A stretch of DNA of 64,000 nucleotides from Hemileia vastatrix (taxonomy: Eukaryota > Basidiomycota > Pucciniomycetes > Pucciniales > Zaghouaniaceae): NCBI GenBank assembly GCA_030280995.1, contig JASXTE010000002.1:34184683-34248682 (forward strand), in the 5' to 3' direction. The notes beneath the pieces were generated by a model. That model ran no database searches. It was not told the DNA's origin and saw only the letters and a program-made list of their open reading frames with translations. Position 1 is the first letter of the stretch; every line of letters starts with the position of its first letter. Below, piece after piece: positions 16,166 through 44,178 of this stretch. The translations under genes and the position numbers were made by a program.

Positions 16166-16490
16166 ATACACTATAATTACATAAATTAATTAATATATAA
16201 ATAAGATATGTCAAGTATACTACTTTTAAAGTAATGACAATTCCTTAAGCCAAAATGCAGATCAAGTCTAGAAACTAGGTTCAATGCAAAGTATTTTTTG
16301 AAGCAACTTATTTAAATAATACTTTATTAAATTAAGTTGATCAATAAAGATTGATTGACAATATTGCAATTCTTAAATACAATAATTTTATTAAAAAATT
16401 TCAGATTACATATAAAAAAAATCAGTGACTTTTTCTATTACTTACAACTGTTTTTACAGAATTGAAAACTATGTTTCAGCTAATATTTTA

Positions 16491-17668: not shown

Positions 17669-18917
17669 GACTCTTATATGATATGATATGAAGATGTAAG
17701 TGATGTACGATGTTTTGAGTTATGAAGTGTTATTCTGCGGAGTGCTGCGTATGAATGGGATGATGCTGACAAATCAGTGAAATGGGACTTGATGGTGAAA
17801 TCAGAACTTTTGGTTGAGAAAGTGCGGATTTGAGTGAAATAAGTGACTTATTTCATTTTGAAATCCACCAGTATTGGGGCTAGTGTGTTTTGGAAATCTG
17901 CACTTATTTAAGTGCGGATTTGGTCAAATTTAAGTGCGGATTTGTAAGTGCGGATTTGCCAGAACTGACACCCCCTAATATAATATATTCTACAAATAAT
18001 GGCGCATTTTTATGTATTTAATAATTATAAATTTATATTTAATTAATTGAAAAACATATATTATAATTATAAGTGTAAAATTGACTTATAATATATTTAA
18101 ATTAATTATTTAAATTTATATATTAAATAACACCTTTCATATAATACTAAACAATAATTAATGACGCTTCTTTTGACCCTTAATTGTGTCAGGAAAAACC
18201 AATTAATTAATTTATACTAAATTGAGATTAATTACATGTTTTGTTGTGTCAAAGTATTTTTTTTGTTTCACTTAAAATATCCTTAAATCAGACTGTACCA
18301 TCTGTTTGGAATTATTTTTCTCATAGTCCCTAAGTTCCAATCTTGTTTAGTTATTCTCTATTTTTACTTACTGATTTAGGAATTAATGGCGGGAAAATTG
18401 GACTCTTAATTGGAGTTTTAATTATTTGTTTCATGTTTTTCTCTACATTGTTATGCTTCATATACTCTTTGATATATTTGTTTTATTCTATTCTAACTAT
18501 TGTATTTACAAACATAGTGGCGCTTCAGAGGACCCATTGCCTATAAAAGGGCCTTGGATAATCCCCTGTAGCAGCATCACTTATTATACACTCCATAAAT
18601 TAAATACTATTTTACTACATTTATATTTTTTTATTAGTAATACAATTCTAATTAAAATTCTATATAACAATTTAAAGGTTGCTTTAAGTCTGATAGTAAT
18701 TAAAAGTGTTTGCCGCGCAGAACCCTTACATTAAATAGTACTATTATTAATAAATCCTAAGTTTTTGTCATCTCTCAAAGTTGCTCACCGTTGTTTTCCT
18801 TTTAAATAAATTAAATATTTTATTATAATTTATTTCCTTTATTTTTTCCCTTGTCCTCCTCCTTCTCTCCTCCTTCTCTCCTCTTTTCCTTACCATCTTC
18901 TAGACAACTGACCGACA

Positions 18918-19604
18918 ACTGGGGACCTTTCCAAACGACGACGACAATCGAGCCTGGCGACAAATGACAAAACGCACGGACCACCTAGCAAAAACAAAAC
19001 TTTTGCCGCGACTGTGTTTTGAACTTGGGTTCGATTTCTTAGGTTTATAATATATTAATTCTTATATTATTTTGAAGTGATTTTTTGATCACTATAGTAA
19101 GTTCACCTTTGCACCTCTCACTCATATTACCATATTTTTACTGCAATAACAGTGATTGTGGCTTAATTGCTGATTCACTGAGTGTAAGTGTTCAATTATT
19201 AAATATTTTTTTTCCTAGTTGACCATTATAGAGTGTTAAATCCTCTTAGTCCTAGAAGAATTAACATTTTTTATTAATACAAATTGAATTATTAATTTAA
19301 TTTTATTATTATTATTAATTATTGTTAATTTTGGTTGACTTAAAAGTACATTGTGCTTAGTCCCAAATATATTGCCATATTTAATATTGGTAATCAATTG
19401 GTTGAATTAACTTGATTTTTATTCCCAATTTAACCTTGCAATCCATTTTTTTTAAATTAATTTTTTATAATTATTACTTTATATTGAAAATTTTTTTTTC
19501 TATAATTTAATTAATAAAATTTTTTTTATTATTTGGAGCAATTATTGACTAACTTTTATTATTTTTTTAAAAAATAAGAAGTAAATTAAAATCTTCCCAC
19601 TAGT
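18918..19604 (+). other. Leader of element D
   Basis: After the LTR the sequence reads ACTGGGGACCTTTCC, the position of a primer-binding site; I cannot match it to a tRNA. The remaining leader is AT-rich with no gene. Confidence 0.5.
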
Positions 19605-20286
19605 ATGTCCAACAATTTGGCAGAAAAAATGGATAACATGCAAGTGGATGAAATAGAAATTGACTATGATGCTGACACTGTAAGTTCTTCTAAAGTTGGT
19701 CATAAAAAATCTTATGCTAACACAAAGAATTCACATACTGCAGGATGTGGAAATGACAGGAAATGCAAACAAACCAAACCCCCTTCCCCCAGTACCACAG
19801 AAGGAAGTAAAGCCTCTAGTGCCTCAAGAAGGTCTTCCAAAAGGCTTCAAAATAAAAAAGCTTCCTCTTCCACAACAAATCAGCAACCTATCCAGTCATA
19901 TAAAAGAGTTGAAGACAGAAAATATGACGTACAAAGCAAAGGTAGACACCTTGTGGGATCAGGTCCAAGAACTCAGGAACCAGATTCAGGCCCAGGCCCC
20001 TCCTCAGTTGCCCCCCAATCAGCCTCAGTTTCAGGCTCAACCTTCACAGCCACCCAGCTCAACCATCCAAAATCCAAATACTATGGAAGTAGAGCAATGG
20101 AAATGGGATTATCTAATGAGTCACTACCAACAGAATGTGCAACACCCTCCTCATCATCAGCCTGGCCCATCCAGAACACCCAATTTCCATCCACCTCCTC
20201 ATCCCTACCAACAAGGCAGGAGAAAGAAGGCCCAAGCACAATCCCAAACCCAGTACCAGGGGAAGTTTCCTCCACTGCCATGGTAA
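19605..20286 (+). CDS. Putative spliced ORF0 of element D (exons 19605-19679 and 19744-20286)
   Basis: The segment 19680-19743 has all marks of a fungal intron: GTAAGT donor, CTAAC branch site at 19717-19721, CAG acceptor at 19741-19743, 64 nt. Removing it joins 25 codons (MSNNLAEKMDNMQ...) to a second frame open to the TAA at 20284, about 205 residues. In that frame the sequence is strongly protein-like: a Pro-rich start (PNPLPPVPQKEVKPLVPQEG), a coiled coil (ELKTENMTYKAKVDTLWDQV, then QELRNQIQAQ), a Pro/Gln-rich tail and a basic end. The unspliced frame over the same bases looks like low-complexity out-of-frame text. The stop overlaps the ATG at 20280 (ATGGTAA). Function unknown; splicing is inference. 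Confidence 0.55.
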
Positions 20287-22607: not shown

Positions 22608-25600
22608 AATTCTGGGCATTTGTTGAAATCTTGTAACTCACTGATCCAGTGTAAAGGTAGAACAAAAACTGAAATGGATGATTTATTACATGAAATAAAT
22701 ACCGCTTCTTTTGGTGATCAGTTGGCTAGTGAACAAAAGGATTCTATTGTTGCCTCTATTACCTCTTTCTCTATGGCTTTTGCTCATGGTTCTCATGTCT
22801 TGGGAATTGTTCAGGAAGAGATGAAAATTACCTTATCCTGTAATTTGAGTGATATTCCTCCTACCCTTAAGAAAAAACCATATCCTGCTTCTCCATCAAA
22901 AAGAAAAGATATTGAAGATAATATTGAAACATTATTAAAAATGAATATCATTGAGAAAGTGGATGTCACCCCCAAATATTGTGTCATCTCCCCAGTCTTG
23001 ATTTCTTATGAAAAAGATAAAGCTAGATTATGTGGAGATTACAGAGCTTTAAATACTTATACTGTTGATGATATTTATCCTTTACCCAGAATTACTTCAA
23101 TACATGCTACCTTGCAAGGTGCAAAATTTATTAGTTGTCTGGATGGTAATAAAGGTTATCATCAAGTTCCAGTTGAGAAAAATTCACAAAATTTTTTGCT
23201 TATTGCTACTCATATGGGAATATATAAGTATTTTAGGATGCCATTTGGCCCTAAAAATGCTCCTTCAGTTTTCCAAAAGGTTATGGATAACACTTTCCAT
23301 CAAGAAATTATTGAAGGTTGGCTCATGGTTTATATTGATGATATTATTGTTTTTTCTAAAACTTTTGATGAGAATATGATTCACTTGAATATAGTTTTCC
23401 AAAAAATGGATGATATCAATATGACCTTATCTTTAAAAAAGTGTAAATTTGGTTTTCAATCTTTGAAAGTCCTTGGCCATGTTGTGTCAGGCTTACAAAT
23501 TTGTGTAGACCATAATAAAGTTGCTGCCATTCAAAATGTGAAAGCACCAACTTCTGTAAGAGAAATCCAAAGTTTTTTGGGGATGTGTGGCTATTATAGA
23601 CAATATATTAAAAATTATCAGGTCATAGCCTTGCCTCTTACAAAACTGACCAGAAAAGATGTTGCTTTTCTCTGGAATAATGACTGTCAAAAAGCTTTTG
23701 ATACATTAAAAAGTTGCTTAATGACAGCCCCTATATTGGCTCTTCCAGATTTTAACAAGCCATTTGTCCTTTATACAGATGCTAGCTTTATTGGTCTGGG
23801 TGCTGCCCTTCACCAAAAGCAAATTATTAATGATAAATCCTCAGAGGTTGTAATTTGTTATATTTCAAGAACCTTAAGAAATAATGAATTGAAATATGGT
23901 GCCACTCAATTGGAGTGCTTAGCAGTTGTTTGGGCTCTTGAGAAACTTCATTACTATTTGGATGACCAAAAATTTGAGTTGGTAACTGACTGTAGTGCTG
24001 TGAAATCTCTCTTAAACCTAAAGACACCTAACAGACATATGTTCAGGTGGCAACTTGCTGTTCAAGAATACAGAGGAAGGATGACAATTATCCATAGAGC
24101 TGGAAATGTTCACTCTAATGTTGATATGCTCTTCAGATTGCCTCTGCCAAATAATGACTCCAATCCTGCTTATGTACCTGAAGACGATACTGTTCATATC
24201 CATGGTATATTTATAGTTGATATGGAAGAGGAGTTATTACAGTTAATACTGGATTCATATGATAAAGATTCTGATTTAAATAAATTGGTTACTATCTTAA
24301 ATGATCCTAAGAATGCTTCAATTCAAGCATTAATAAAAACTCTTCCTGCAAAGTACCAAAATGCTTTAAATAAAGGAAAGTTCTCTATTGAAGATGGTTA
24401 TATTTATTATAGAAGGAAGCTTACCAATGTAATTGTTATTCCTCCTTCAATGAAAGAAACTATCCTCAAACTTTGTCATGATGACATATTAGCTGGTCAT
24501 TTTGATCTTGAAAAAACATTGATTAGAATCAAAAACACTGCATGGTGGGCTAATATGTCTGAAGACACAAAATTATATGTTGAATCTTGTGATTCCTGCC
24601 AAAAATCTAAAAGGTTGACAGGTAAGAGAGCAGGGTTATTACAACATATTGAAGCACCTAGTGCTCCCTGGCAAATCATTAATATGGATTTTGTCACTGG
24701 TCTTCCTGTTGCAGGTAAAGACAGCTTTAACTCTTGTTGGGTAATAGTAGATAGATTCACAAAAATGTGCAAATTTATTCCAACCCACAAAGATGTATCC
24801 ACCAAAGAATTAGCTTTCTTATGGTGGTCTTACATGTTTAATATTATTGGTTTTCCAAAAGCCATTATCTCTGATAGGGATCCGAAATTCACTTCTGATT
24901 TTTGGACCTCTTTGATGGATATTTGTGGCTGTGAGTTAAAATTGTCTACAGCTCACCATCCTCAGACTGATGGTCTAGCTGAAAGAATGATTCAAACTCT
25001 GGAAGATATGATTAGAAGGTATTGTGCCTTTGGTTTAGAATATAAAGACAATGACAGATTTACTCATGATTGGGTCACTCTTTTGCCTGGTCTTGAATTT
25101 GCATATAATAGCACTGTTCATTCTGTCACTGAGAAAAAGCCTTTTGAGCTTTGGTTAGGTTATGTCCCAAACACTCCTGCTCAGATTCTCAATAATAAAT
25201 TACCTAAGTTGGAACTACACCCTGGTGTAAAATCTTTTATGCAAATGCAACAGCTATGCAGAAAACATGCTCAGAGTTGTATTGATAAAGCATTTGAATA
25301 TGAAAAGAAAAGATGGGATAAATCCCATAAAGAATACACATTTAACAAGGGTGATGAAGTGTTGATCTCTACTGTCAATTTCAATTTACAAGGTAACCAC
25401 AAATTAAAAGATCCTTTTGTAGGACCATTTGTTGTTAAAAGAATGGTTGGTGATAATGCAGTAGAAGTTGTATTGTATTCTCCATATGATAGGAAACATC
25501 CTGTCTTTCCCATTTCATTGCTTAAGCCTTATACTTCCAACAGTGACTTATTTCCAAAAAGAAGAGGAAGACCTAAGAAAAACCCTCAGGAAGTCACAGA

Positions 25601-25772
25601 AACAGCAGAAATTGATAAAATTCTCAATGATAGAATTATCACTTCTGAGAGAGGTACTGAATATTTATTGAGATATAAGAACAAATCATCTGAACATGAT
25701 GCATGGATACCTGGAAAGGAAATTTCAAATCTGCCTACTCTGTTGAAAAAATACAAAGAGAAAAAATCTTAG
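22608..25772 (+). CDS. Pol of element D (RT, RNase H, integrase, chromodomain)
   Basis: Continues the Gag-Pro frame directly after one UAA; no ATG is near the junction, so readthrough (or a recent nonsense change) is implied. Counting from 22620: reverse transcriptase with VYIDDIIVFSK (about 237-247); RNase H with YTDAS, QLECLAV, VTDCSAV and a final NVDMLFR; integrase zinc finger HDDILAGH ... CDSCQKSK; integrase core with NMDFV, SDRDPKF and LAERM giving D, D, E; a GPY/F-type module (PFVGPFVVKRMV); and a chromodomain at about 990-1045 (EIDKILNDRI, then AWIPGKEISNLPTLLKKY). All catalytic residues are present. About 1050 residues, a usual length. Confidence 0.95.
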   Translation, partial: NSGHLLKSCNSLIQCKGRTKTEMDDLLHEINTASFGDQLASEQKDSIVASITSFSMAFAHGSHVLGIVQEEMKITLSCNLSDIPPTLKKKPYPASPSKRKDIEDNIETLLKMNIIEKVDVTPKYCVISPVLISYEKDKARLCGDYRALNTYTVDDIYPLPRITSIHATLQGAKFISCLDGNKGYHQVPVEKNSQNFLLIATHMGIYKYFRMPFGPKNAPSVFQKVMDNTFHQEIIEGWLMVYIDDIIVFSKTFDENMIHLNIVFQKMDDINMTLSLKKCKFGFQSLKVLGHVVSGLQICVDHNKVAAIQNVKAPTSVREIQSFLGMCGYYRQYIKNYQVIALPLTKLTRKDVAFLWNNDCQKAFDTLKSCLMTAPILALPDFNKPFVLYTDASFIGLGAALHQKQIINDKSSEVVICYISRTLRNNELKYGATQLECLAVVWALEKLHYYLDDQKFELVTDCSAVKSLLNLKTPNRHMFRWQLAVQEYRGRMTIIHRAGNVHSNVDMLFRLPLPNNDSNPAYVPEDDTVHIHGIFIVDMEEELLQLILDSYDKDSDLNKLVTILNDPKNASIQALIKTLPAKYQNALNKGKFSIEDGYIYYRRKLTNVIVIPPSMKETILKLCHDDILAGHFDLEKTLIRIKNTAWWANMSEDTKLYVESCDSCQKSKRLTGKRAGLLQHIEAPSAPWQIINMDFVTGLPVAGKDSFNSCWVIVDRFTKMCKFIPTHKDVSTKELAFLWWSYMFNIIGFPKAIISDRDPKFTSDFWTSLMDICGCELKLSTAHHPQTDGLAERMIQTLEDMIRRYCAFGLEYKDNDRFTHDWVTLLPGLEFAYNSTVHSVTEKKPFELWLGYVPNTPAQILNNKLPKLELHPGVKSFMQMQQLCRKHAQSCIDKAFEYEKKRWDKSHKEYTFNKGDEVLISTVNFNLQGNHKLKDPFVGPFVVKRMVGDNAVEVVLYSPYDRKHPVFPISLLKPYTSNSDLFPKRRGRPKKNPQEVTETAEIDKILNDRIITSERGTEYLLRYKNKSSEHDAWIPGKEISNLPTLLKKYKEKKS

Positions 25773-25793
25773 CATTTTTTTATTATTATTTTT

Positions 25794-25810
25794 TTTTTAG
25801 AGTGAGGGAG
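25794..25810 (+). promoter_or_regulatory. Polypurine tract of element D
   Basis: TTTTAGAGTGAGGGAG immediately before the 3' LTR start TGTCAG; the purine run AGAGTGAGGGAG would prime plus-strand synthesis. Confidence 0.75.
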
Positions 25811-26949
25811 TGTCAGTCAGGCTATTCGAGGAGTCCAGTAAAAATGATACATAACTTATAAAACCTGAAAGAGTGGGTAAGAATTGTATTTAATGAATAT
25901 AAATTAATATTTTATTGCATAATAAAATTATATAAGTATTTTATTATATACAAGTGTTATATTAATTTATTGGTTATATAAATTTTTATATACAGTTAAA
26001 TTGAACATAATATAATATATTCTACAAATAATGGCGCATTTTTATGTATTTAATAATTATAAATTTATATTTAATTAATTGAAAAACATATATTATAATT
26101 ATAAGTGTAAAATTGACTTATAATATATTTAAATTAATTATTTAAATTTATATATTAAATAACACCTTTCATATAATACTAAACAATAATTAATGACGCT
26201 TCTTTTGACCCTTAATTGTGTCAGGAAAAACCAATTAATTAATTTATACTAAATTGAGATTAATTACATGTTTTGTTGTGTCAAAGTATTTTTTTGTTTC
26301 ACTTAAAATATCCTTAAATCAGACTGTACCATCTGTTTGGAATTATTTTTCTCATAGTCTCTATGTTCCAATCTTGTTTAGTTATTCTCTATTTTTACTT
26401 ACTGATTTAGGAATTAATGGCGGGAAAATTGGACTCTTAATTGGGGTTTTAATTATTTGTTTCATGTTTTTCTCTACATTGTTATGTTTCATATACTCTT
26501 TGATATATTTGTTTTATTCTATTCTAACTATTGTATTTACAAACATAGTGGCGCTTCAGAGGACCCATTGCCTATAAAAGGGCCTTGGATAATCCCCTGT
26601 AGCAGCATCACTTATTATACACTCCATAAATTAAATACTATTTTACTACGTTTATATTTTTTTTATTAGTATTACAATTCTAATTAAAATTCTATATAAC
26701 AATTTAAAGGTTGCTTTAAGTCTGATAGTAATTAAAAATGTTTGCCGCGCAGAATCCTTACATTAAATAGTATTATTATTAATAAATCCTAAGTTTTTGT
26801 CATCTCTCAAAGTTGCTCACCGTTGTTTTCCTTTTAAATAAATTAAATATTTTATTATAATTTATTTCCTTTATTTTTTCCCTTGTCCTCCTCCTTCTCT
26901 CCTCCTTTTCTCCTCTTTTCCTTACCATCTTCTAGACAACTGACCGACA
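25811..26949 (+). repeat. 3' LTR of element D
   Basis: 1139 bp, TGTCAGTC ... CCGACA, uninterrupted, followed by the duplicated GTTTT. It preserves the empty site of the nested transposon insertion (near 26006-26020). Confidence 0.95.
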
Positions 26950-27600
26950 GTTTTGGTTGGAAACCAGGATATTATCAAGGAGTTTCTTTTGGTGTGTAAA
27001 TATTTTTTATTATAAGTAATTTTTAATTTTGTCATATATTTCAGGAATTTATTCTGTATTGAAAAATTTGAAACCAGAGAAAATGGAAGAAGATCTGAAA
27101 CAATGGAATTCTTTAGGACCATTTAATATTCTCTTGGCAAATTGATTTAAAAAATTATGTATTCAAGCTTTTCAAAAAAACCATCAACTTGCTTTAAAAT
27201 CTGGTTTACCAAATTGGTCTAATCCTGAATGGGAAGAAGCAATAAATGCTTATTTTTTTGTTCTAATGTTATCATCACTTATAAAGGATTCTAAAATAAT
27301 TTTCATCTAGATAAACATGATAAGAATTGCCTAAAATTTTGAATTTTCTCTTATATTAATCCAGAGACTGGTGTTCCTATTTCATCAACCTCTTCTGATG
27401 AGGGACATGACCTTTATTTTTCTGGCCATAAATTGATTATTGATTTTGGTAGTGCCAGTGGAATAGTTGAGACTATATGAAATTCTTCTCAACATTGGCA
27501 TCAAAAAACTAAAGCACCTCCAACTTTAGTTTATTGTCAAGATTTTACCTATTTTGGCTGTTAATTCCAAATAAATGAAGGTCTTATTAATTTTATTAAT
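26950..27600 (+). pseudogene. TET/JBP-like 2OG-Fe(II) oxygenase, 3' part, element 3
   Basis: Continues the gene broken at 15064: across the GTTTT site the frame reads KGFGWKPGYYQGVSFG, then an intron (donor about 26992, acceptor TTTCAG about 27045), IYSVLKNLKPEKMEEDLKQW, a helical stretch (SGLPNWSNPEWEEAINAYFF), and after a frameshift FHLDKHDKNCLKF with a candidate iron-binding H-x-D (27304-27312). Then come GHDLYFSGHKLIIDFGSASG and SSQHWHQKTKAPP with a candidate second His (about 27488-27500), and FTYFGC. Motif order fits the TET/JBP-like dioxygenases expanded in rust and other basidiomycete genomes, which oxidise methylated bases. At least four stops and a frameshift: dead. The assignment is from pattern memory. 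Confidence 0.62.
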
Positions 27601-28039
27601 AATTAAAAAAAATTTAGATAAAAAAATTGTTCTTAGTAGATCTGTCAAGTATGGTAACTAAAATATTATAAAAAATTTTCAATCATCAAATATTTTCTTC
27701 CATTTTTTTCTTTTTTTTTCTTATTTATTAAATTTTTTTATTTTATTTTATTTTTTATCTTTTTTAATTTTTTTAAATTTTCCTTTTTATTTTCCTTTTT
27801 TTCAATTTTATTTTTCAATTTTAATTTTTTTTTAAATTTTGGATTTGTCTCTTCTAATTATTTTTTAAAGTTAAGTCAAGATAGATTACTGGTTTTATAT
27901 AATGGTGCATCTGGTCTTAGGTTGCTCTACTGGCTATTATACAAAATAGGAAAACTTGATTGGGACTGGTGAAAATAATTGGTTGTAGAAATTTTCATTT
28001 TTAATTTTTTTTCCATTTGTTTTCTTTGATTCAATAAAT
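27601..28039. other. T-rich 3' flank of the oxygenase-like gene
   Basis: Long T-rich tracts, no gene. A decayed coding trace may continue at 27880-27990, but I could not follow it. Confidence 0.4.
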
Positions 28040-28330
28040 TTCAGGGGGGGAGGGTATTGCCAAATTTTCATATCAGAATTTAAAAAAAAAATTGACTTGA
28101 AAATTTGGTGATACCCTTCCCTTAATTCAATAAAATACAGGGGGGGGGTATTTCCAAATTTTCACATGAGACTTGCAAAAAAAAATTGACTTGAAATTTT
28201 GGTGATACCCATCCCTTACTTCAATAAAATTCAGGGGGGAGTATTGACAAAATTTCATATAAGACTTGCCAAATTCTTTACTTCAAAAATTTTTGGTGAT
28301 ACCCACCCCTTAGTTCAATCATAAGCAGGA
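28040..28330. repeat. TIR-like minisatellite, element 3
   Basis: About four units of about 80 bp: CAGGGGGGAGTATTGCCAAA, a TTCATAT.AGACTTG core, AATTTTGGTGATACCC and CCCTTA.TTCAATAAAAT. Each unit is bounded by GGGGGTATT-like and GATACCC-like sequences in opposite directions, resembling the transposon ends (AGGGGGTATC). It lies between the convergent 3' ends of two genes and contains AATAAA-type signals. Confidence 0.75.
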
Positions 28331-28559
28331 GTGGAATTGGGGAATTTTCAAATGTGACTTGAAAGTTTTAACTAAAAAAGAATTTTTACATTAAAAATTC
28401 TTGAAAATTTTATTTAAAAAATATTTATAACATTAAAATATGAAAATTCAACTAATGATGAATAGAGTAAAGAAATACAGGAATTTAAGATAAAGTTTTA
28501 TGTACAATTAATCATGGACAGTTGAAATTTGAGAGAAATAAAACAAACTAGTAATCAAG

Positions 28560-29885
28560 AAATTTCTTTAAACATTCAATTTCCTCAACAGATTTATTAA
28601 CTTTAACACATTCTATCAAGAAATCTTTCTTTTAGGAATTTTCTTCACCATCAAGCTTATATTTCATCTGTTCCATGAGGTTTTGATGCTAGAGTGTTTT
28701 CTCCTCTTTCTTTAATTTTTCAATACTTAGATATCACTCAAATTTCTTCTCCTCCAAGACTTGTGTCCTATCATCCTTCCATAAAGAGAGTTCAAAATTC
28801 TTCTCTTCCAAATCATGTACCCTGTCATCCCTCCTTAAAGAGAGCTTGTATTTTTGTTTTTAAAACTTTAGAGTCTCTTTAGAAACTTCTACTTGTTCTA
28901 GAGTGATAAGAAATATTAACAAAAAGTAGAAGAAAAGCAGAGTAAAGTATTAAAAGGTTTGGTATCACTTACCAGCATCACGTTTCTCCAAAAATTCTTC
29001 AATAGAAGAAAAGGGGTTTGAGATGAAGTATCACTTTTTCTTCTTCTTTGAAAGTGGAAATTTAGACTACTTGAAGCCCTTTGCTTTTTTTTCAGTGTCA
29101 CATTTTCCTCCTTATCATTGTCGCTGGCTTCGACTCAGTTGATTGTGACTCCTGTGTTTGTTCTTCAGCCTATTTATAAATAAGAAAATGTTAATAAAAA
29201 AAAGAATTGGTAATATAAAAGAAAAAAAACATACTTGAGTTAGATCAGGTTGGTTTATATCTCCATAAGGATCTATTGAAAAGATATCTTGATTTGTGGA
29301 AGTTAAATGAGGGGAGGCTTGAGTAGAAGAAGAAGGAAAAAGATTTCTTTTGACATCATGTTTGGAGATAGAATCTTCACCATCCAACATGCTTGAAGGA
29401 TTAAAATAAGCATCCTCTCCAAATATAGAATCCATCTCTTTAAAGTACGGACATAAAGAATCAAGTTTATTGTCTATGGATTTGATGCCCTTACTGATAT
29501 CAAGGTCAGTAATACCAAAACCAGTAGAAGATGAAAGAGTCTTTGTCTTTTTGTATTTGGCTCAATAATGCTTAAAGAATTCAGAAATATGTTTAAGTAA
29601 AATATCTATCCTTCCCTTGATCTTATTCTGTAATTTGTTGGCCATTAGAAGATAACCATTAACTTTTGATGCTGGGGGCAGTCCTACTTTAGTTGCATTT
29701 TTGGTACCAAAACAAGAATCATAGTTAGATTTAGTTTTCAGCCAGTTTATAAGAATGAGATGATCATCTTTTTTTAATTGAACGGACTTTGATTTCTCAG
29801 CTGAGCAGGGGAAAGAGGGAGTAGTGCGATTTGAAGAACAGCTGGTGGAAGGCTGCCTTTGAGAAGATCTATGATGACGGGGCAT
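28560..29885 (-). pseudogene. Myb/SANT-like accessory protein, element 3
   Basis: Start ATG at 29885 (MPRHHRSSQRQP). Exon 1 has the Myb/SANT-like region (KKDDHLILINWLKTKSNYDS, PPASKVNGYLLMANKLQ) interrupted by TGA at 29562 (after FFKHY), where the copy at 42394 has CGA. It continues as GFGITDLDISKGIKSIDNK and MLDGEDS. An intron (about 29238-29170), exon 2 (Ser/Lys-rich) and a second intron follow. The coiled-coil exon (about 28880-28560) is degraded. Nearly identical to the element 2 copy, with which it shares the TGA. Converges on the oxygenase-like gene. Confidence 0.7.
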
Positions 29886-30254
29886 GTTAAGATAAATGAA
29901 GATGAAAAGGAGAAAAAACAAGTAGATTAGAAAGTGAGGTGTCCTAAATGGAGAGAATAGACAGGATGAGATGAGAGTGGGGATGGGAAGCATGGTAGAA
30001 GGCATATCCATAGATCAGTCAATGATTTGGTTACGAATGTAAGTAGGCCAAGATGTGATTATGAAAGAGAGTTGTCCAATATGTGTTTATGAAAAATTGA
30101 GTAGTAAAATGTTGGATAAGAGGTCAACTTTGACATGTAAAATGTCCAATAACCCAATTATTAGCAAAAATAATTGCAGAAGATAATTGGGTTATAAGGA
30201 ATTTTATCCCCAATTAATTTTAATTGCAGATCTGTCAACTTAGATACCCCTATT

Positions 30255-31748: not shown

Positions 31749-32117
31749 ATTAGGGGGTAGCAAAGTTGACCAATCTACAATTAAATTAATTTCAGATAAA
31801 AATCCTTATACCCCAATTATCTTCTGCAATTATTTTTGCTAATAATTGGGTTATTGGACATTTTACATGTCAAAGTTGACCTCTTATCCAACATTTTTCT
31901 ACTCAATTTTTCATAGCCACATATCGGACAACTTTCTGTCATAATCACATCTTGGCCTACTTTCATTCATAACCACATCATTGACTGATCTATGGATATG
32001 CCTTCTACCATGCTACCCATCCCCATTCTCATCTCATCCTGTCTATTCTCTTCTTTTAGGACACCTCACTATCTAATCTACTTGTTTTTGCTCCTTTTCA
32101 TCTTCATTTATCTTAAC

Positions 32118-33510
32118 ATGACCCTTCACCATAGATCTTCTCAAAGGCAACCTTCCACCAGTTGTTCTTCAAATAGCACTACTCCCTCTTTCTCTGGCTC
32201 AGCTGAGAAATCAAAGTCCATTCAATTAAAAAAAGATGATCATCTCATTCTTATAAACTGGCTGAAAACTAAATCTAACTATGATTCTTGTTTTGGTACC
32301 AAAAATGCAACTAAAGTAGGACTGCCCCCAGCATCAAAAGTTAATGGTTATCTTCTAATGGCCAACAAATTACAGAATAAGATCAAGGGAAGGATAGATA
32401 TTTTACTTAAACAGATGTCTGAGTTCTTCAAGCATTATTGAGCCAAATACAAAAAGGCAAAGACTCTTTCATCTTCTACTGGTTTTGGTATTACTGACCT
32501 TGATATCAGTAAGGGCATCAAATCCATAGACAATAAACTTGATTCTTTATGTCCTTACTTTAAAGAGATGGATTCTATTTTTGGAGAGGAAGCTTATTTT
32601 AATCCTTTAAGCATGTTGGATGGTGAAGATGCTATCTCCAAATATGATGTCAAAAGAAATCTTTTTCTTTCTTCTTCTACTCAAGCCTCCCCTCATTTAA
32701 CTTCCACAAATCAAGATATCTTTTCAATAGATCCTTATGGAGATATAAACCAACCTGATCTAACTCAAGTATGTTTTTTTTCTTTTATATTAACAATTCT
32801 TTTTTTTATTAACATTTTCTTATTTATAAATAGGCTGAAGAACAAACACAGGAGTCAAAATCAACTGAGTCTGAAGCCAGCGACAATGATAAGGAGGAAA
32901 ATGTGACACTGAAAAAAAAGCAAAGGGCTTCAAGTAGTCTAAATTTCCACTTTCAAAGAAGAAGAAAAAGTGATACTTCATCTCAAACCCCTTTTCTTCT
33001 ATTGAAGAATTTTTGGAGAAACGTGATGCTGGTAAGTGATACCAAACCTTTTAATACTTTACTCTGCTTTTCTTCTACTTTTTGTTAATATTTCTTATCA
33101 CTCTTGAACAAGTAGAAGTTTCTAAAGAGACTCTAAAGTTTTAAAAGCAAAAATACAAGCTCTCTTTAAGGAGGGATGACAGGGTACATGATTTGGAAGA
33201 GAAGAAGTTTGAACTCTCTTTATGGAAGGATGATAGGACACAAGTCTTGGAGGAGAGGAAGTACAAGCTCTCTTTATGGAAGGATGATATAGCACAAGAC
33301 TTGGAGGAGAAGAAACTTGAGCTAACTGTTAGTATTGAAAAATCAACGAAAGAGGAAGAAAAACTTGAGTATCAAAACTTAATGGAAAAGATAAAAATTA
33401 AGCATTATCTTGAAGAAAATTCAAAGAAGAAAAAAATTTTAATTGAATGTGTTAAAGCCAATAAATCTTATGAGGAAATTCAATTTCTAGTGAAAATTTT
33501 TAATGACTAG
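32118..33510 (+). pseudogene. Myb/SANT-like accessory protein, element 2
   Basis: Start ATG 32118 (MTLHHRSSQRQP). Exon 1 runs to about 32769 with the Myb/SANT-like domain and a TGA at 32439-32441 after FFKHY, the same nonsense codon as in element 3. Intron 32770-32833 (GTATGT ... AATAG), exon 2 (AEEQTQESKSTESEASDND), intron from about 33032 (GTAAGTGATACC) to about 33109, then a coiled-coil exon with three degenerate repeats (LEEKKFELSLWKDDR type) ending IQFLVKIFND at 33510. One further stop lies at the start of the last exon (about 33142). Otherwise well preserved. Confidence 0.72.
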
Positions 33511-33654
33511 TGTGTTTAATTTCTTTCATACTTCAACTATTCATAATTATTTGTACATAAAATTTTACAATAATTTCCTTTATTTCATTACTGTATCCAT
33601 CATCAGTTTAATTTTTGTATTTTAATTTTAAAAATTCTTTTTAAATTAAATTTT

Positions 33655-34070
33655 CAAGTATCATTTAAAAATTTGCCAATCCCCCCCTTAAGATTTTTGA
33701 AGTAACAGGTGGGTATAACCAAAATTCTTTCAAGTCAAGAATCTTGAAAGTCTTATGAAAATTTGGCATTAATACCCCCTACATTTTATGGGTATCACCA
33801 AAATTCTTTCAAGGAAAGAATTTTGCAAGTCTTATAAGAACTTTTGGCAATACTCCCCTCTGCATTTTATTGAAGTAAGGGACAGGTATCACCAAAATTT
33901 CAATTCAAAATCTTTAAGTCAGGTTTGAAAATTTGGAAATACCCTTCCTCCCTCCCTGCATCAAATATTTACAAGTCAAAAATTTTACCTGTCAGATTTG
34001 AAAATTTGGCAATACTCCCCCCCCCCCTGCATTTTATTGAAGTAAGGGGTGGGAATCACCAAAATTTAAT
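33655..34070. repeat. TIR-like minisatellite, element 2
   Basis: Four to five units of about 80 bp (CCCTGCATTTTATTGAAGTA, AGGGGTGGGTATCACCAAAA, then TTTGGCAATAC), the complement-strand equivalent of 28040-28330, placed between the Myb-like and oxygenase-like genes. Confidence 0.75.
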
Positions 34071-34347
34071 ATAATTACATAAATTAATATATAAACAACC
34101 AATATAAATCAATATCCCTATTTTAAAGTAATGCCGATTCCTCCTACCAAAATTTGGACCAATTCTAGAAACTAAGTTTGGGACTTTCCATAGGTATAGG
34201 CGAGATAAACCCCATAAAAAAATAAATGTTATCATGATTTCCATTTATACAACATAAGGTCATTGGCCCATTACTTTATTTTATGAATTTAAAATATAAA
34301 AGTTATTTATAAAAAATTTATGAAAAAATATATAATATTTTATGACT
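34071..34347. other. AT-rich stretch, no gene seen
   Basis: Between the minisatellite and the 3' end of the oxygenase-like pseudogene; nothing recognised. Confidence 0.4.
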
Positions 34348-35640
34348 CTACTCATCCCCATACTTTTTTGATCTACATATAGTTTTTTTATATCTGTTAA
34401 TTTTACCTTCTTTTTTTAACTTGTTTATTTGGTGGATTAATTTTTTACTGATTTGAAATGAACATCTGAAATGTGTGAGCTCTTGACAAGATTCCAAGCC
34501 AGGTGGAGCTTTGGCTGTTTGGTGATGATCCTGAGAAGAGTTCCAAATTGTTTGGATCATTCCATTTACCAAAAAAAAACAATCATGCATTGAAGATCTG
34601 GAAAATATAAGCCATGTCCTTTGATTTTAGCTGGAGTTGGTATTTATTAGCCAGTTATCTGATTGATATTTGAGAAAATTCTAAAAGTAAGATAATTTGC
34701 ATCATTTCTATTGATATTAATCTTAATGTTTAATCCTGAATGAGTGATAATAACATTTAAAAATAAAAGATATTTGTTACTTATTTCTCCCCATTCCAGG
34801 TCACACCAATTTGGTGTTCCAACTTTGGTAGAAAGTTGATGATTCTTTTTGAAAGCTTTATTGCAGAGTTTTTTGAGGCAAAGAGCAAAAAAAGTATTAA
34901 AAGTAGGTAAGGTGTTCAATAAGAAAAAATCATCATATTTGTTAGCTTTAGATAATTTTTTAAGTAAAGAATAGATGCCTATGGAAATAAAATGAGTGAC
35001 ATGATTTCAAGAATGATGCATATATTATCAGACATGCCAAAATAATAGCCTTTATCAAATCTAGGTCTCCAATAAAATCCAAGCATAATACCACCCAAAA
35101 AATTTGTTTTCCTTATTGATAAGCAAACCAAAGCAATTTGATATAGTGTTATTATTATATTGGATAGTTGATTAAATATTTCATTTTTTGAACCATTAAA
35201 AGAATGATTTTCATAAATAAATTGAGGTTTAAAAAAATTACTGATAACTGCTTTAATTTCATCTTCTTCTTATTTTGCCAAATATTTTAAATCTTCTGGT
35301 AACTCATTTTGATAAGAATTTTTTTGATCCACTTTATTTTTATTGTACTCAATATTTGATATATGGCCAAATAAACAATCCAAATGAATTTTTTTTGATT
35401 TCTTTTATTCTTCTGAGTTTGATAATCATTTTTTTGATATTTTGGATGATGATTGAAATCAAGTTGAGTTTGAAAAAGATGATAAAGAGGATAAAGAGGA
35501 TGTTGATACAGAAGTAAGAGGTGATTCTGACAAAATAGACATTTTTTTCTCTGAGCAAAAAAAAATTTGTTTCAAAAACCAAAAAAATGGAAAAAAAATA
35601 AAACTCACAAAATTTAGTTTGTTTATTCAACCTTAAAAAT
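34348..35640 (-). pseudogene. TET/JBP-like 2OG-Fe(II) oxygenase, element 2
   Basis: Minus-strand reading: a Ser-rich N-terminus (SPLTSVSTSSLSSLSSFS, about 35530-35460), the block FKPQFIYENHSFNGSKNEIF and LYQIALV (about 35235-35130), then GGIMLGFYWRPRFDKGYYFG (about 35100-35040), NHQLSTKVGTPNWCDLEWGE and DANYLTFRIFSNINQITG, then KGHGLYFPDLQ, NGMIQTIWNSSQDHHQTAKA and ELTHFRCSFQISKKLIHQIN (to about 34420). It aligns block by block with the element 3 gene. The candidate H-x-D iron site is N-I-N here (about 34715), so it would be inactive even without its stops and frameshifts. The family call is by motif order and remains to be tested by profile search. Confidence 0.62.
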
Positions 35641-36049
35641 TTTATTGATAAAAATTAATCCAAAAAAAATTTTTGAAAAGAAATTAATTAATAAAACTGT
35701 CCTTGAAAAAAAAAATTGAAACAAAAAAAATAAAATAAAATAAAAACAAACATCAGTAAAATTATTTTCCAAAAAAATGAGTTTTAAGGAAATTTGGTAT
35801 TAGATATACCACCTAAAGTCCTTGAAAAAAAATGATAAAAAAAATTATAATCAAAAAAACAAACCAGAAAAAAAAAACTTGTACCAGAAAATTTTTTCCC
35901 AAAAATAAAAACCAAAATTATAAACACACAAAATTTATTTTTGATTCAGCTTTAACTGTAAAAAATTATTTTTTAATATTCTGTAAAATATAAACAAAAA
36001 AAATACAAAATAATTTAAATTTTCTTTTACATACACCCATATTACCTCT
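35641..36049 (-). other. A-rich leader of the oxygenase-like gene, element 2
   Basis: Complement of the T-rich leader at 13721-14389, with cores such as ATATACCACCTAAAGTCC. No coding signal. Confidence 0.35.
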
Positions 36050-36500
36050 CCTTGTCTGCCTCATTGACCTCTTTTTGGTGTTCTAAAACCCCCCTCCCCC
36101 TTCTTGATCTCCTCAAAGCCCCCTTCTACCCTCTTTAGGCCATCTCACAATACTTCCCCCCCTCCCCCCCCTCCTCCCTCCCCTCCCCTCTCACCTTGCC
36201 TCCTACCCCCTTTAATAGCTAAATGAATTTCTTGGAGATTCATTATCTAAAAGGTAGAGGGTGGAGGTGAGGTGAGAGTGGAGGGGGGAAGCAGTGGAGG
36301 GGAGAGGGGGATAGTTGAGAGGTGGCCTAAAGGGGGTAAAAGGGGGGAAAGGGGGGGAAAGGGCCTAAAGAGGGAAAAGGGGGGCCTAAAGGGAGGAAAA
36401 AGAGCACCTAAAGGGGGTAAAATGTTAGGAAGAGAATAAGGGGGGAAATAAGGATTGAGGCAGTCAATAAGGGGGGAAAGGAGGGAAAAAGAGCAGGACA
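36050..36500. repeat. Long C-rich/G-rich imperfect inverted repeat, element 2
   Basis: About 150 bp of C-rich pyrimidine sequence, a centre with TGAAT...ATTCA near 36222-36241, then about 255 bp of G-rich purine sequence. Same place and polarity switch as in element 3, but different exact sequence, so structure rather than sequence seems kept. Confidence 0.78.
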
Positions 36501-36972
36501 AGAGAGAAAAGAGGGAGAGAAAAAAACAAAAAAATTAGTTTAACCTTGAAAAAAAATAAATGAAGCACTTACAAAAAAAATAGAAAAAAACAAAAAAAAA
36601 GCATAAAAAATCATGATTAGCAAATAAAAATTCAATAAAAATGAAAGAAATGACTTACCTGGTGAGATAAGTTAAAAAAATTTAACCAAAATATATAAGG
36701 GATTTTTGAGGAGAGGAGGAATAGGATATGAGGGAAGAATGAAAAAAAGAAACACTGAAAAAATATGTGATTTCATGTTGAGATGGTGAAAGAAAACCAA
36801 TGAGCCATCAAAAAGAGAAATTCACAGTAAATTCAAAAAAATGAATATTCAACAAATAAAAATACTAAGCCAAGTGAATAAAGTATACCAAGTGGAAATT
36901 TGGAGAGTATGAAAACATAAATTAAAAGGGTTGTGTGTCAAAATGGTGGAGGGTGATTGGCATAATTAAAGA

Positions 36973-38299
36973 TCATATGCTGGTTGAATAAATATTTTGT
37001 GATTCAAGAGAGGGGAGAGCTGGTGCTGGTTCAGGATCCTCTTCTTCATAAAGATCATTCCACTCATCCTTTAATTCAGCTAGGATATTGTGGAGTATAA
37101 CGCAAGTCATGATCCAATGATTTGCAGTTTTGATCTCCAATTTTCTTAGAAATTGAATTCTGAGCTCCCAGAGACTAGAAAATATTCCCTTTAAAATACC
37201 AATAGCATGTTTAATCTGTACTCTTGATTGGGCAAGGTGATAATAAAGGTGGTTTTGGGGTCATTTTCTAAATTTGCACAATGGAAAGCAGGTATTATGT
37301 ACTTTCCACTTGTATATGCTGAGTCTGCAAGGAGGTACTGAGATTTGTCAAAGTATGAGTCAGGAATTTGAGAAATCCTCATTCTTTGGAAGAGGGAAGA
37401 GTCATGACATGAGCCGGGGCAGCCACTATGAAAAGAAATAAACTTTTTGTTGACATCACAGACAATTTGAATGGCAATAGGGTATCTAAAAAGAAGATGA
37501 AAAGTTATTTTATAAAAGATAAGAAATTGCAGAACATTTTGAAGAAAAATTTTTTGCAATCAAAATAATGGTTTCCATAATGAGCAGGCTTTTGACTCAA
37601 AGGTATATTTTTGCCATCAACAAAACCTACACATCCAGGGAAGCCTTTGGCTTTAATTACTTGAAAGGATTCAAGTTGCTGTTGTGGAGTTGGCCAAGCA
37701 AGTGTTTGAGACTTGAGTGAAAGGATAGCAATCATACAGCTCTTGTTGTATAATATTACCATACCATATCCTATGGTAAAGAGATTATCCAAATATCTTA
37801 CAGCAGCACCATTTCTATATAAGCCAAAGCAACTTAGTGCAAAAGCAAGTTGAATAGAAGGATCACACTGTTTACTTTGAGAATTGTTATGAAAGATAGG
37901 ATGTTTGGAGATGAGTTGATAAAGTTTGAAAAAAGAATTGGGAGAAGTTTGAAATATTTGAGTGAAGTTTAGTTGAGGAATGTTGAGAATGGAGCAGAGA
38001 TCATATCTGGGATCATGATGAAGATTTGGCCCCCTTGGGTTTATGTAATGCTTTTTAAGAATAAATAACATATAGGCTAAAGCATCTTCCAAATCAGAGT
38101 TGGATTTATAGAAAAGAACTAAAAGTAAAGTGATAGTATTCATAGTTGAGTGAAGTAGCTGCCTAGTAGAGAGGTGTTTCCTAGTTGTTGGTGGAAGGCT
38201 TATGTGATGAGGGAAGTGGGATCTCACTGCCAAAATGTGCAGTTGGGGTGTGTAGATAGAAAAAAACTTTAACTGTTTGCTACCAAAATTAAGAAGCAT
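36973..38299 (-). pseudogene. PIF/Harbinger DDE transposase, element 2
   Basis: Start ATG 38299 (MLLNFGSKQLKFF); the first 264 codons are open. FVDGKNIPLSQKPAH (about 37595-37640) holds the first catalytic Asp. The intron donor after FDCKK is lost (TTTT instead of GTTT, about 37550), so the frame reads into the intron to a stop at 37505. The rest resumes with YPIAIQIVCDVNKKF, GSCHDSS, LLADSAYTSGKY (second Asp, about 37300-37335), a frameshift near 37240, then RVQIKHAIGILKGIF, where the catalytic Glu is Lys, as in element 3. The end is near 36973. The most complete transposase in the window but inactive. Confidence 0.88.
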
Positions 38300-38447
38300 A
38301 GAGTGAGGAAAGACTTAAGAATGGCATCAGCAATTATAAGTCATGTGACTTTCTTAAAAATCCATCATGGATTTGATGAGTTTGGGATCAGGAATTAAGA
38401 ATGGAAATTGGGGTATATAAGGCAGGATAATTCATTATTGTGGATTC

Positions 38448-38479
38448 CTTATCCACTAGCCTCAGGGCTAATGGATAAG
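38448..38479. repeat. Subterminal inverted repeat on the transposase side, element 2
   Basis: CTTATCCACTAG ... CTAATGGATAAG, one mismatch between the arms; equivalent to 11046-11077 and 10460-10491. Confidence 0.75.
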
Positions 38480-38675
38480 AATCTTCGGCAATTAATAATG
38501 TCTGATCCTGTGAAAAAAATTCTTTATCCTTAATTTCAGATCCCTTAACTTTGATACCCCGTATTATACACATTAGCAATGTACTATTTTTGGAAAAGAC
38601 AAAGATTATTTCATTCCTTTTATTTAAAATATTTTTTATCTCTTTTTTTCTGCCAGAAAACTTCACCTACAGATT

Positions 38676-39091
38676 AGCGTGTATCAATGTTCAGGGATCC
38701 ACAATTAGGGATCAGCAATTTTTTTCCTGGGATCAGACATTATTAATTGTGGATAAGGAATTAACAATAATGCATTATCCTGCCTCTTATACCCCAATTC
38801 CCATTCTTAATTCCTGATCCCAAACTCATCACATCCATGAGGCATATCCAGAGAGTAGTCCAAGATGTGGTTATGGCAGAAAGTTGTGCAACATGTGGTT
38901 ATGACAGAAATTTTTCCAAGATGTAGTTATGAAAAATTGAGTTTTAAAATGTCAGATAAGAGGTGAACATTGACACGTAAAGTATCTAATAACCCAATTA
39001 TTAGAAAAAATAATAACGGAAGATAATTAGGGTATAAGTATTTTTATCTGAAATTAATTTAATTGTGGATCCCTGAACATTGATACCCCCT
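38676..39091. mobile_element. MITE of the PIF/Harbinger-like family
   Basis: 416 bp flanked by ATT (38673-38675 and 39092-39094). The left 140 bp match transposase-side ends (as at 11000-11150) and the right 250 bp match, inverted, Myb-side ends (as at 42046-42300). All genes are deleted. The terminal repeats are of the TATCAATGTTCAGGGATCCA subtype, like the element at 42046. Confidence 0.85.
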
Positions 39092-41785: not shown

Positions 41786-42393
41786 CTGGTTAAAAGAGTG
41801 TCAATGCTTTTGCACACCAGATAATTTTTATTCACAAGAATGTTTTATTACTTGGTCATTTTTTTGTTAAAAAATATAATTAAGTGCAATGAAAATATGG
41901 TAAATTTGCAAATTTGTGTTTGTTATTTAAATTGCATCCATCACCATGGGAAATTTGGGGGTGAACTGCTAATGTTTCTCCCTATTTGAACTCAATATTA
42001 ACCCTATTTTATGCAACATGTTGGTTCCACCATAAATACCACATTAGGGGGTATCAATGTTCAGGGATCAGCAATTAAATTAATTGCGGATAAAAATCCT
42101 TATACCCCAGTTATCTTCCGCAATTATTTTTGCTAATAATTGGGTTATTAGACACTTTACGTGTCAATGTTCACCTCTTATCTGACAATTTTTTACTCAA
42201 TTTTTCATAACCACATCTTGGACAACTTTCTGTCATAACCACATCTTGACCTACTTTCTGCCATAACCACATCTTGGACTACTCTCTGGATATGGCTTCT
42301 ACCTTGCTGCACACTCACATTCTATCCGCTCAGAACCCCTCACCATCTCATCTGCTTGTTTCTGCTCCTTTTTATCTTCATTTATATTTTAAC

Positions 42394-43798
42394 ATGCCTT
42401 GTTGTCCTAGATCTTCTCAAAGGCAGCCATCACCCAGTTGTTCTTCAAATCCCACTACTCCCTGTTTCTCCCGCTCAGCTGAGAAATCTAAGACCGTTCA
42501 ATTAAAAAAAGATGATCATCTCATTCTTATCAACTGGCTGAAAACCAAATCTAACAATGATTCTTGTTTTGGTACTGAGTATTCCACTAAAGTAGGACGG
42601 CCCCCTGCATCAAAGGTTAATGGCTATCTTCTAATGGCAAATGAATTACAGAATAAGATCAAGGGAAGGATTGATCTTTTGCCTAAACAGATGTCTGAAC
42701 AATTCAAGCATTACCGAGCAAAATACAAGAAGGCAAAGGCTCTTTCATCTTCCACTGGTTTTGGGGTTACCAACAACGATATAACTAAGGGAATAAAATC
42801 CATAGACAATAAACTTGAAACTTTATGTCCTTACTTTAAAGAGATGGATGCAATTTTTGGAGAGCGAGCAAATGTTAATCCTGTAAACATGTTGGATGGT
42901 GAAGATTCTACCTCCAAACATGATTTTAAAGCAAATTTTTTCCCATCCTCTTCCTCCACTCAAGCCTCCCCTCATTTGAATGAGACATATCTAGATAGAT
43001 TTTCTGTAGATCCTATTGGTGATTTAACCCAACCAAATCTAACTCAGGTCTGTTTCTTTTTTCTTTTATCTTATCTTTTCTATTTTTTATTTACTTATCT
43101 TTTTCTTATTTCTTAAAAGGCTGATGAACAAACCCAGGATTCTCAATCAACTGAGTCTGAAGGTAGTGACAATGATGAGGAGGAAAATATGACCTTGAAC
43201 AAGAAGCCTAGGCCTTCAAGTAGTCTAAATTTACACTCACAAAGAAGACAAAAAAGTGATACTTCATCACAACCCCCTTTTTTGTCTATGGAACAATTTT
43301 TAGAGAAACGTGATGCTGGTAAGTGATACCATACCTCTTATTACTTTACTCTACTTTTCTTCCACTTTATATTAATTTTTATTATCACTCTAGAAAAAGT
43401 AGAAATTTCTAAAGAGACTCTAAACTTTGAAAAGAAGAAATATGAGCTCTCTTTAAGGAGGGATGATAGGCTACAAGATTTGAAAGAGAGGAAGTACGAG
43501 CTCTCTTTATGGAAGGATGATTGGGCCCAAGATTTGGAGGAGAGGAAGTACCAGCTCTCTTTACGGAAGGATGATCAGGCCCAAGATTTGGAGGATAAGA
43601 AGTTTGAGTTAACTTTAAGTATTGAAAAAATTGATAAAAGAGGAGAAAACACTTGAACATCAAAACCTATTAGAGCAGATGAAATATAAGTTTGATCATG
43701 AAGAGAATTCCAAAAAGAAAGATTTCTTGATAAAATGTGTTAAAGCTAATAAATCTGTTGAGGAAATTGAACGTTTAAAGAAATTGTTGGATGACTAG
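42394..43798 (+). pseudogene. Myb/SANT-like accessory protein, best-preserved copy
   Basis: Exons 42394-43047, 43120-43318 and 43394-43798, with introns GTCTGT...AAAG and GTAAGT...CTAG, both in phase. Start MPCCPRSSQRQP. Domains: Ser/Pro-rich N-terminus (about 1-30); Myb/SANT-like helices (about 35-125: DDHLILINWLKTKSNND, CFGTEYSTKVGRPPASKVNG, LLPKQMSEQFKHYRAKYKKA); a conserved GFGVTNNDITKGIKSIDNKL and CPYFKEMDAIFGE block; an acidic linker (exon 2); and a coiled coil with repeated ERKYELSLWKDD units. The only clear lesion is a 1-nt frameshift near 43635, after which the intact frame continues to IERLKKLLDD. It would bind transposon ends and help import or recruit the transposase, as known for PIF/Harbinger Myb-like proteins. 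Confidence 0.7.
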
Positions 43799-43949
43799 TT
43801 TGTTTTATTTCTCTCACACTTCAACTGTTCATATTTATTTGTACATAAAATTTCCAATAATTTCCTTTATTTCATTACTCTATCTATCATTACTTGATTT
43901 TTTGTATTTTAATGTTAAATATTCTTTTTTGAAATAAAATTTTCATGTC

Positions 43950-44178
43950 TCCTTTGAAAATTTGACGATCTCCCACCCCTGGATTTTTTTGAAGTAAGGG
44001 GTGGGTATCACAGAAATTCTTTCATGTCATGAATCTTGAAAGTCTTATATGAAACTTTGGCTTTACTACCCCCTGCATTTTACCGGTATCCCAAAAATTC
44101 TTACATGTCAAGAATTTCACAAGTCTTATAAGAAATTTTGGCAAAACCCCCCATGGATTTTATTGAAGTAAGGGACGG
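43950..44178. repeat. TIR-like minisatellite, truncated
   Basis: Two to three units equivalent to 33655-34070, ending abruptly at AAGTAAGGGACG before the LTR start TGTAGACA. Confidence 0.65.

What the first reader, a model, noticed from the sequence alone, without database searches (positions are those of the whole stretch)
31752..38562. A PIF/Harbinger-like transposon that carries a TET/JBP-like oxygenase gene
Element 2 is a complete TIR-to-TIR unit (ATT duplication) with three genes: DDE transposase, Myb/SANT-like protein, and between them a gene whose motif order (GFYWRPRFDKGYYFG, DLEWGE, FRIFSNINQITG, GHGLYF, ELTHFRCSFQIS) reads as a TET/JBP-like 2OG-Fe(II) dioxygenase. Element 3 repeats the same order independently inserted elsewhere, so the third gene is part of the transposon and not a chance capture. 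Basidiomycete TET/JBP genes are known beside KDZ-type transposons; I do not know of a PIF/Harbinger association. It suggests a transposon that brings its own enzyme for oxidising methylated bases, perhaps to escape silencing (inference).
Basis: partly seen in the sequence, partly recalled or inferred. Interest (0 to 1): 0.92.

Follow-up and report, generated by a model that had tools for sequence, protein, structure and literature searches.

The report
Transposon with swappable DNA-oxidising enzyme gene
A cut-and-paste DNA transposon in a fungal genome carries, besides its own moving machinery, a gene for an enzyme of the kind that oxidises methylated DNA; such transposons were described in rust fungi in 2025, but here the enzyme gene appears to have been exchanged between related transposons.

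Summary
31752-38562 (C) is a TIR-bounded PIF/Harbinger element with an ATT duplication, a DDE transposase, a third gene and, between them, a Tet-like 2OG-Fe(II) oxygenase (PF20515, above cut-off). Two other bounded copies in the window (A, B) carry one too. The genome (747.6 Mb) gave 10,849 first-look oxygenase and 18,794 transposase candidates; 7 of 10 oxygenase-anchored stretches hold all three genes in C's arrangement. The association is published: Kojima 2025 (PMC12730594) reports TET+ Harbinger families in rusts. What differs or is added: a 3-bp AWT duplication, not the TA of his PHISTA lineage; an oxygenase cassette whose tree conflicts with the transposase tree (AU p <= 0.004); a different oxygenase, reversed, in A; a sibling with none of the tested types (L051); purifying selection between B and C oxygenases. 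C itself is dead: transposase E reads K, oxygenase HxD reads NxN, frames broken. Protection from methylation silencing is plausible but unproven. Host unnamed, rust-like.

The parts
31752..38562 (.). Element C: PIF/Harbinger transposon, ATT target duplication at 31749-31751 and 38563-38565
31992..33510 (+). C third gene (relatives Myb/SANT-like below cut-off), interrupted by a TGA stop at 32439-32441
34351..35269 (-). C Tet-like 2OG-Fe(II) oxygenase, broken frames, HxD reads NxN; PF20515 on 34650-35006
34002..36500 (.). C cassette: 52-67% identical to B here while the arms are 73-99% identical; 34002-35501 is 67-84% identical to L033 of the F subfamily (arms 45-71%)
33688..34066 (+). Repeat units of about 79-94 bp at one cassette border, related units in B, E and F
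36060..36500 (.). Polypyrimidine/polypurine tract near the other border of the B-C difference (also in B and F)
37191..38299 (-). C DDE transposase; catalytic residues read D, D, K
3820..10575 (.). Element A, AAT/AAT; transposase residues N, D, E; oxygenase on the opposite strand from C's
7476..8502 (+). A-type oxygenase gene (HxD reads HxY by eye); 85-86% nt identical to L054, which lies outside this transposon
10963..30251 (.). Element B, ATT/ATT, inverted relative to C, split by a retrotransposon
14833..15069 (+). B oxygenase, part before the retrotransposon (no Pfam match of its own; similar to C)
26950..27612 (+). B oxygenase, part after the retrotransposon; HxD is HLD; PF20515 below cut-off
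11226..12546 (+). B transposase; catalytic residues D, D, K
15271..17976 (.). Element F, deletion derivative of the second subfamily in the retrotransposon's left LTR; the right LTR shows the empty site and a 3-bp AAT duplication
38676..39091 (.). Element D, 416-bp MITE of the family, ATT/ATT
42046..44176 (+). Element E, truncated copy with an open third-gene exon

Best explanation
C is a decayed member of a high-copy PIF/Harbinger family that moves by a DDE transposase, makes a 3-bp AWT target duplication, and in many full-length copies carries a Tet-like 2OG-Fe(II) oxygenase gene as an optional, exchangeable cassette between transposase and third gene. Shown: structure, target duplication, families, recurrence in the genome, conflict between oxygenase and transposase trees, a signature of past purifying selection on the oxygenase, CpG loss. 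Inferred: the cassette moves between subfamilies by recombination, at one border in shared repeats; the enzyme oxidises 5-methylcytosine on the transposon's DNA and so delays silencing and CpG deamination; C and its neighbours lost that race and are fossils.
For: PF20515 above cut-off in C, A and L033 (E 3e-32); HxD and the distal His invariant in 10 rows from 8 genome copies. Third gene, oxygenase and transposase in C's order and orientation in 7 of 10 oxygenase-anchored and 2 of 5 transposase-anchored stretches. Bounded three-gene copies with equal 3-bp flanks: L033, L034, L044, L048, L053. The transposase tree joins C with B (98/98); the oxygenase tree puts B and C on opposite sides (100/100 and 100/99); AU p 0.0038, 5e-5, 8e-5, 0.001. 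Identity of C to B falls and to the F subfamily rises inside the cassette. B-C oxygenase dS 1.6, dN 0.34-0.43, 0 of 500 column shuffles reach the observed pS-pN; transposase dS 0.18, dN 0.14. CpG 0 observed against 23 and 27 expected in the C and A oxygenase regions.
Against: No activity, expression or methylation was measured. Carrying an oxygenase did not prevent CpG loss in A, B and C, and DNA between the elements is as depleted (0.02-0.03), so the loss is not specific to them. L051 has an open 462-codon transposase with D, D, E and none of the tested oxygenase types, so the enzyme is not needed for movement. Of 25 concordant end pairs sampled, 21 are under 5 kb, too short for the full set. 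L049 and L050 showed neither third gene nor oxygenase in 10 kb. The similarity of C's cassette to L033 ends near 35500, before the polypurine tract, so the second border is unclear. PDB sequence searches found no TET relative.
Confidence: 0.72

Rival explanations
1. The oxygenase is passive cargo: an abundant gene that many elements pick up, without benefit to this transposon.
For: A sibling without it exists (L051); A-type genes are dispersed (2475 candidates, 150 scored) and the one such copy examined sits outside this transposon (L054); A, B and C are dead.
Against: dN/dS near 0.21-0.27 between B and C oxygenases and open frames of 389 and 393 codons in L031 and L033, whose transposase frames are interrupted, point to long constraint; the cassette keeps its slot in 7 of 10 sampled stretches.
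Confidence: 0.3
2. The B-C difference is ancient divergence of the oxygenase, with the arms made alike later by gene conversion; no cassette transfer occurred.
For: The left arms of B and C are 93-100% alike over about 1.5 kb, which is conversion-like.
Against: C's cassette is about 77% identical in DNA to that of the other subfamily, whose transposase and third protein are only 48-52% identical to C's; AU tests reject agreement.
Confidence: 0.12
3. The enzyme modifies DNA in some other way (as JBP or CMD1 do) rather than helping demethylation.
For: Kojima 2025 raises the possibility for the rust type; PF20515 is a family, not an activity.
Against: Strong CpG loss suggests that 5-methylcytosine was common in these elements; inference only.
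Confidence: 0.2

Closest known systems
TET+ Harbinger families ('PHISTA') of rust fungi, Kojima 2025, PMC12730594 (parts 1-5 of 7 and passages read)
   Same: Harbinger transposase, a TET/JBP-like oxygenase and a third gene in one element; oxygenases said to pass between transposons with no signature at the ends; TET+ and TET- families cluster together
   Different: PHISTA is defined by a 2-bp TA duplication and a third protein without Myb/SANT; here the duplication is 3 bp (AWT) and relatives of the third protein give a recurrent but sub-threshold Myb/SANT match. His supplement was not available here, so this family could be one he lists with the duplication read as TA
Nuwa and canonical PIF/Harbinger (as described in Kojima 2025)
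   Same: 3-bp duplication; transposase plus a second protein; L051 has this two-gene layout
   Different: An added oxygenase gene in many copies; Myb/SANT not established
KDZ (Kyakuja-Dileera-Zisupton) transposons with TET/JBP (Iyer et al., not seen; as cited in Kojima 2025)
   Different: Unrelated transposase (recalled), 7-8 bp duplications
HarbingerS of oomycetes with a SET methyltransferase (as cited in Kojima 2025)
   Same: Harbinger carrying a chromatin-modifying enzyme
   Different: A histone methyltransferase, not an oxygenase

Membership tests
PIF/Harbinger superfamily | DDE_Tnp_4-type transposase | tested here: met
   C E 2e-9, A and B, L033 E 8e-25
PIF/Harbinger superfamily | 3-bp target duplication with short TIRs | tested here: met
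   11 of 11 copies whose two ends I paired; empty site; 25 of 27 end pairs
PIF/Harbinger superfamily | Second gene with Myb/SANT domain | tested here: inconclusive
   PF13837 E 0.0013-0.087, never above cut-off; no match for C's own piece; low-confidence models
PHISTA (TET+ Harbinger) | 2-bp TA target duplication | tested here: not met
PHISTA (TET+ Harbinger) | TET/JBP oxygenase inside the element | tested here: met
   absent in L051
PHISTA (TET+ Harbinger) | Third protein without Myb/SANT | tested here: inconclusive
PHISTA (TET+ Harbinger) | Transposase falls in the PHISTA clade | not tested
Nuwa (Harbinger) | Transposase falls in the Nuwa clade | not tested
   no Nuwa sequences at hand
Tet-like 2OG-Fe(II) oxygenase (PF20515) | Profile match above curated cut-off | tested here: met
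   A, C, L033, 150 of 150 scored of 10,849 candidates; B pieces below cut-off
Tet-like 2OG-Fe(II) oxygenase (PF20515) | HxD and distal His | tested here: met
   Invariant in 10 rows from 8 genome copies; HLD in B; lost in C (NxN) and A (HxY). That these residues bind iron is stated in Kojima 2025
TET/JBP enzymes | Oxidation of 5-methylcytosine or thymine in DNA | not testable with these tools
   none

The most novel reading that the evidence does not exclude
In this genome the oxygenase is a swappable module of Harbinger transposons: subfamilies exchange oxygenase cassettes by recombination at repeats beside the cassette, some take an unrelated oxygenase in reverse orientation, some do without, and the enzyme stays under selection for longer than the transposon arms that carry it. 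The transposons would trade anti-silencing tools, as phages trade counter-defence genes.
Probability: 0.45. Interest if true: 0.72.

Novelty: new variant of a known kind. Interest (0 to 1): 0.52.

Why it matters
Transposon-borne TET-like enzymes suggest that mobile elements carry tools against DNA-methylation silencing. A genome with thousands of exact transposon ends, oxygenase-plus and oxygenase-minus siblings, several oxygenase types in the same slot, and strong CpG loss makes that idea testable by comparing copies within one genome.

Tried and rejected
Protein-database searches with the C piece and the A frame found no relatives at E <= 1; the transposase found one metagenome fragment. PDB sequence searches were empty or gave unrelated weak hits. 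NCBIfam added only weak IS5-type hits for the transposase. Two AlphaFold models of the third protein were too uncertain to use (pLDDT 43.8 and 64.8). Inverted repeats framing A's oxygenase as a nested element were looked for; none was convincing. A 2-bp TA duplication was considered, because the ends are flanked by TA, and rejected by the empty site. A 5-bp duplication was rejected because the outer bases disagree in B, D, L033, L044, L051 and L053. One search printed wrong end comparisons for B and F (coordinates off by a base or more); one search has the right ones. Plasmid DNA search: no match. Rfam and tRNA scans: none. The substitution spectrum had too few polarised CpG changes to decide anything. 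The host could not be identified from papers (listings; passages); low GC and CpG depletion resemble Austropuccinia psidii in PMC12774611 (passages), which is no proof.
Full report
It is 34.9% GC with CpG at 0.21 of expectation. The contents look like a rust fungus, but the host is not identified.

Anatomy in the window. Self-comparison and end scans show one transposon family in several copies: A 3820-10575, B 10963-30251, C 31752-38562 (the finding), a 416-bp MITE D 38676-39091, and a truncated copy E from 42046. A related subfamily is represented by F 15271-17976. The ends read AGGGGGTATC or, in F, AGGGGGTGTC, with some changes, and A, B, C, D and F have equal 3-bp flanks, AAT or ATT. B was interrupted by a Ty3/chromodomain retrotransposon (15070-26949; LTR parts 98.0% and 98.9% alike), and F later inserted in that element's left LTR. 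The right LTR keeps the empty site and shows a 3-bp duplication; reading it as TA would leave three extra bases. Genome-wide, the pattern AWT + end matches 8,919 times exactly against 0 for the reversed control. Among the 100 places listed, all on one contig, 27 adjacent convergent same-type pairs lie within 10 kb, and 25 have the same middle base on both flanks (binomial P 3e-6).

Genes of C. The transposase matches DDE_Tnp_4. C's own third-gene piece gave no Myb match; copies A and E and three genome relatives give Myb_DNA-bind_4 below cut-off, and for L034 another family scored slightly better. The middle gene matches PF20515, Tet-like 2OG-Fe(II) oxygenase, above cut-off on one stop-free piece. 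A's piece is above cut-off, the longer A frame just below it; B's clean pieces are below it, but B is 47-57% identical to C in protein. C is dead: the transposase triad reads D, D, K, the third gene has a stop, the oxygenase changes frame, and its HxD reads NxN against HTD in open genome copies. B's transposase reads D, D, K and A's N, D, E.

Genome copies. PF20515 gave 10,849 first-look candidates, of which 150 were scored and all 150 passed the cut-off; 0 of 14 control genomes rang. The C transposase gave 18,794 candidates, 145 scored, all at 73% identity or more. Ten 10-kb stretches around oxygenase hits were taken, chosen by me from the 150 listed, not at random. Seven of 10 (L031-L035, L044, L048) hold third gene, oxygenase and transposase in C's order and orientation. 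L047 holds all three, but its third gene lies in a second element that begins at another TIR; L045 lacks the transposase and L046 the third gene within the stretch. Five stretches around transposase hits, also chosen by me: L052 and L053 hold all three; L051 is a bounded element with an open transposase and third gene and no oxygenase of the tested types; L049 and L050 show neither. L051 also holds the start of a second element with an oxygenase. Bounded three-gene copies are L033, L034, L044, L048 and L053; all 11 copies whose two ends I paired, window included, have equal AWT flanks. In L053 two candidate right ends exist; I took the one of the kind that other copies have on the third-gene side. 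The oxygenase frame is open over 389 and 393 codons in L031 and L033, but their transposase frames are interrupted by a stop.

Cassette exchange. B and C are 71-100% alike in windows over the arms and 46-76%, mostly 50-66%, over the cassette; one shuffled stretch gave 46-47% against 57% real. C's cassette is about 77% identical in DNA over 1.5 kb to the cassette of the F subfamily, whose transposase and third protein are only 48-52% identical to C's. In 250-bp windows C is 67-84% identical to L033 over 34002-35501 and 45-71% over the arms; beyond 35500 there is no excess. Thirteen copies with both genes were put in trees (L045 and the second L051 element left out for want of a transposase row, A for want of an oxygenase row). 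The transposase tree joins C and B (98/98); the oxygenase tree puts B with L032, L035 and L047 (100/100) and C with L052, L053 and the F subfamily (100/99), its exact place being weaker (82/83). AU tests reject agreement: oxygenase data with all same-arm elements as one clade p 0.0038, C plus B p 5e-5; transposase data with the C-type oxygenase carriers as one clade p 8e-5, C plus L052 plus L053 p 0.001; third-protein data p 3e-6. The groups were named after seeing the trees, which weakens the p values, and C has a long branch. One border lies in repeat units with relatives in B, E and F; near the end of the B-C difference lies a polypurine/polypyrimidine tract in B, C and F. Recombination there is an inference. 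A's oxygenase is on the opposite strand from C's and belongs to another group (2475 candidates, 150 scored). The one relative examined, L054, is 85-86% identical over just the gene and has none of this transposon's genes in 9.5 kb.

Selection and decay. Between B and C the oxygenase has dS about 1.6 and dN 0.34-0.43; pS minus pN is 0.33 in the right frame against 0.10 and -0.06 in the other two, and 0 of 500 column shuffles reach it. The transposase has dS 0.18 and dN 0.14. The blocks cover 157-202 codons picked from alignable parts, which lowers dN, and dS is near saturation. CpG is 0 of 23 expected in C's oxygenase region, 0 of 27 in A's, and 3 of 25 over both parts of B's. CpG observed/expected is 0.06 over C and 0.03 over A, and 0.02-0.03 in DNA between elements, against 0.24-0.36 in L031, L033 and L034 and 0.37 in F. 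This fits long methylation and deamination of the whole region, as PMC12774611 reports for Austropuccinia psidii transposons (passages).

Known work. Kojima 2025 (PMC12730594; parts 1-5 of 7 and passages) reports TET/JBP genes in 11 transposon lineages, among them 15 TET+ Harbinger families in six rust species named PHISTA, with TA duplications and a third protein without Myb/SANT, and passive transfer of TET genes between transposons. The finding is therefore a variant of a published kind. It fails PHISTA's TA criterion as tested here. Because the ends here are flanked by TA, a 3-bp AWT duplication can be misread as TA; whether that happened in PHISTA cannot be checked without his sequences.

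Mechanism. Most likely the transposase and third protein move the element and the oxygenase acts on methylated transposon DNA to delay silencing and mutation; the last step is inference. Against it, oxygenase-bearing copies in this window decayed anyway, and a sibling without one has an open transposase.

Noticed in passing
window 44176-44998 with 53606-56743: Sequence on both sides of the 44999-53605 retrotransposon is contiguous in L049 (1909-5708) directly after a Harbinger transposase arm, and its junction recurs in L050 and L032: apparently another mobile element, with weak Zn_clus ORFs, that also truncated E.
   Followed up: partly
window 15070-26949: Ty3 element with chromodomain inside B's oxygenase gene; its flanks share GTTTT.
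   Followed up: partly
window 41511-41768: Fragment of a further Harbinger-like transposase, 45% identical to C's.
   Followed up: no
L054 3694-5512: A-type oxygenase with HxD intact, beside Copia-like ORFs (named by eye) and without Harbinger genes in 9.5 kb: this oxygenase group may travel by another route.
   Followed up: partly
G000:C2:189934-10304702: Of 25 concordant end pairs, 21 are 1.5-4.6 kb, so short derivatives outnumber full-length elements in this sample.
   Followed up: partly
window 16490-16930: Near-perfect tandem repeat of a 123-bp unit (99% alike) inside F.
   Followed up: no
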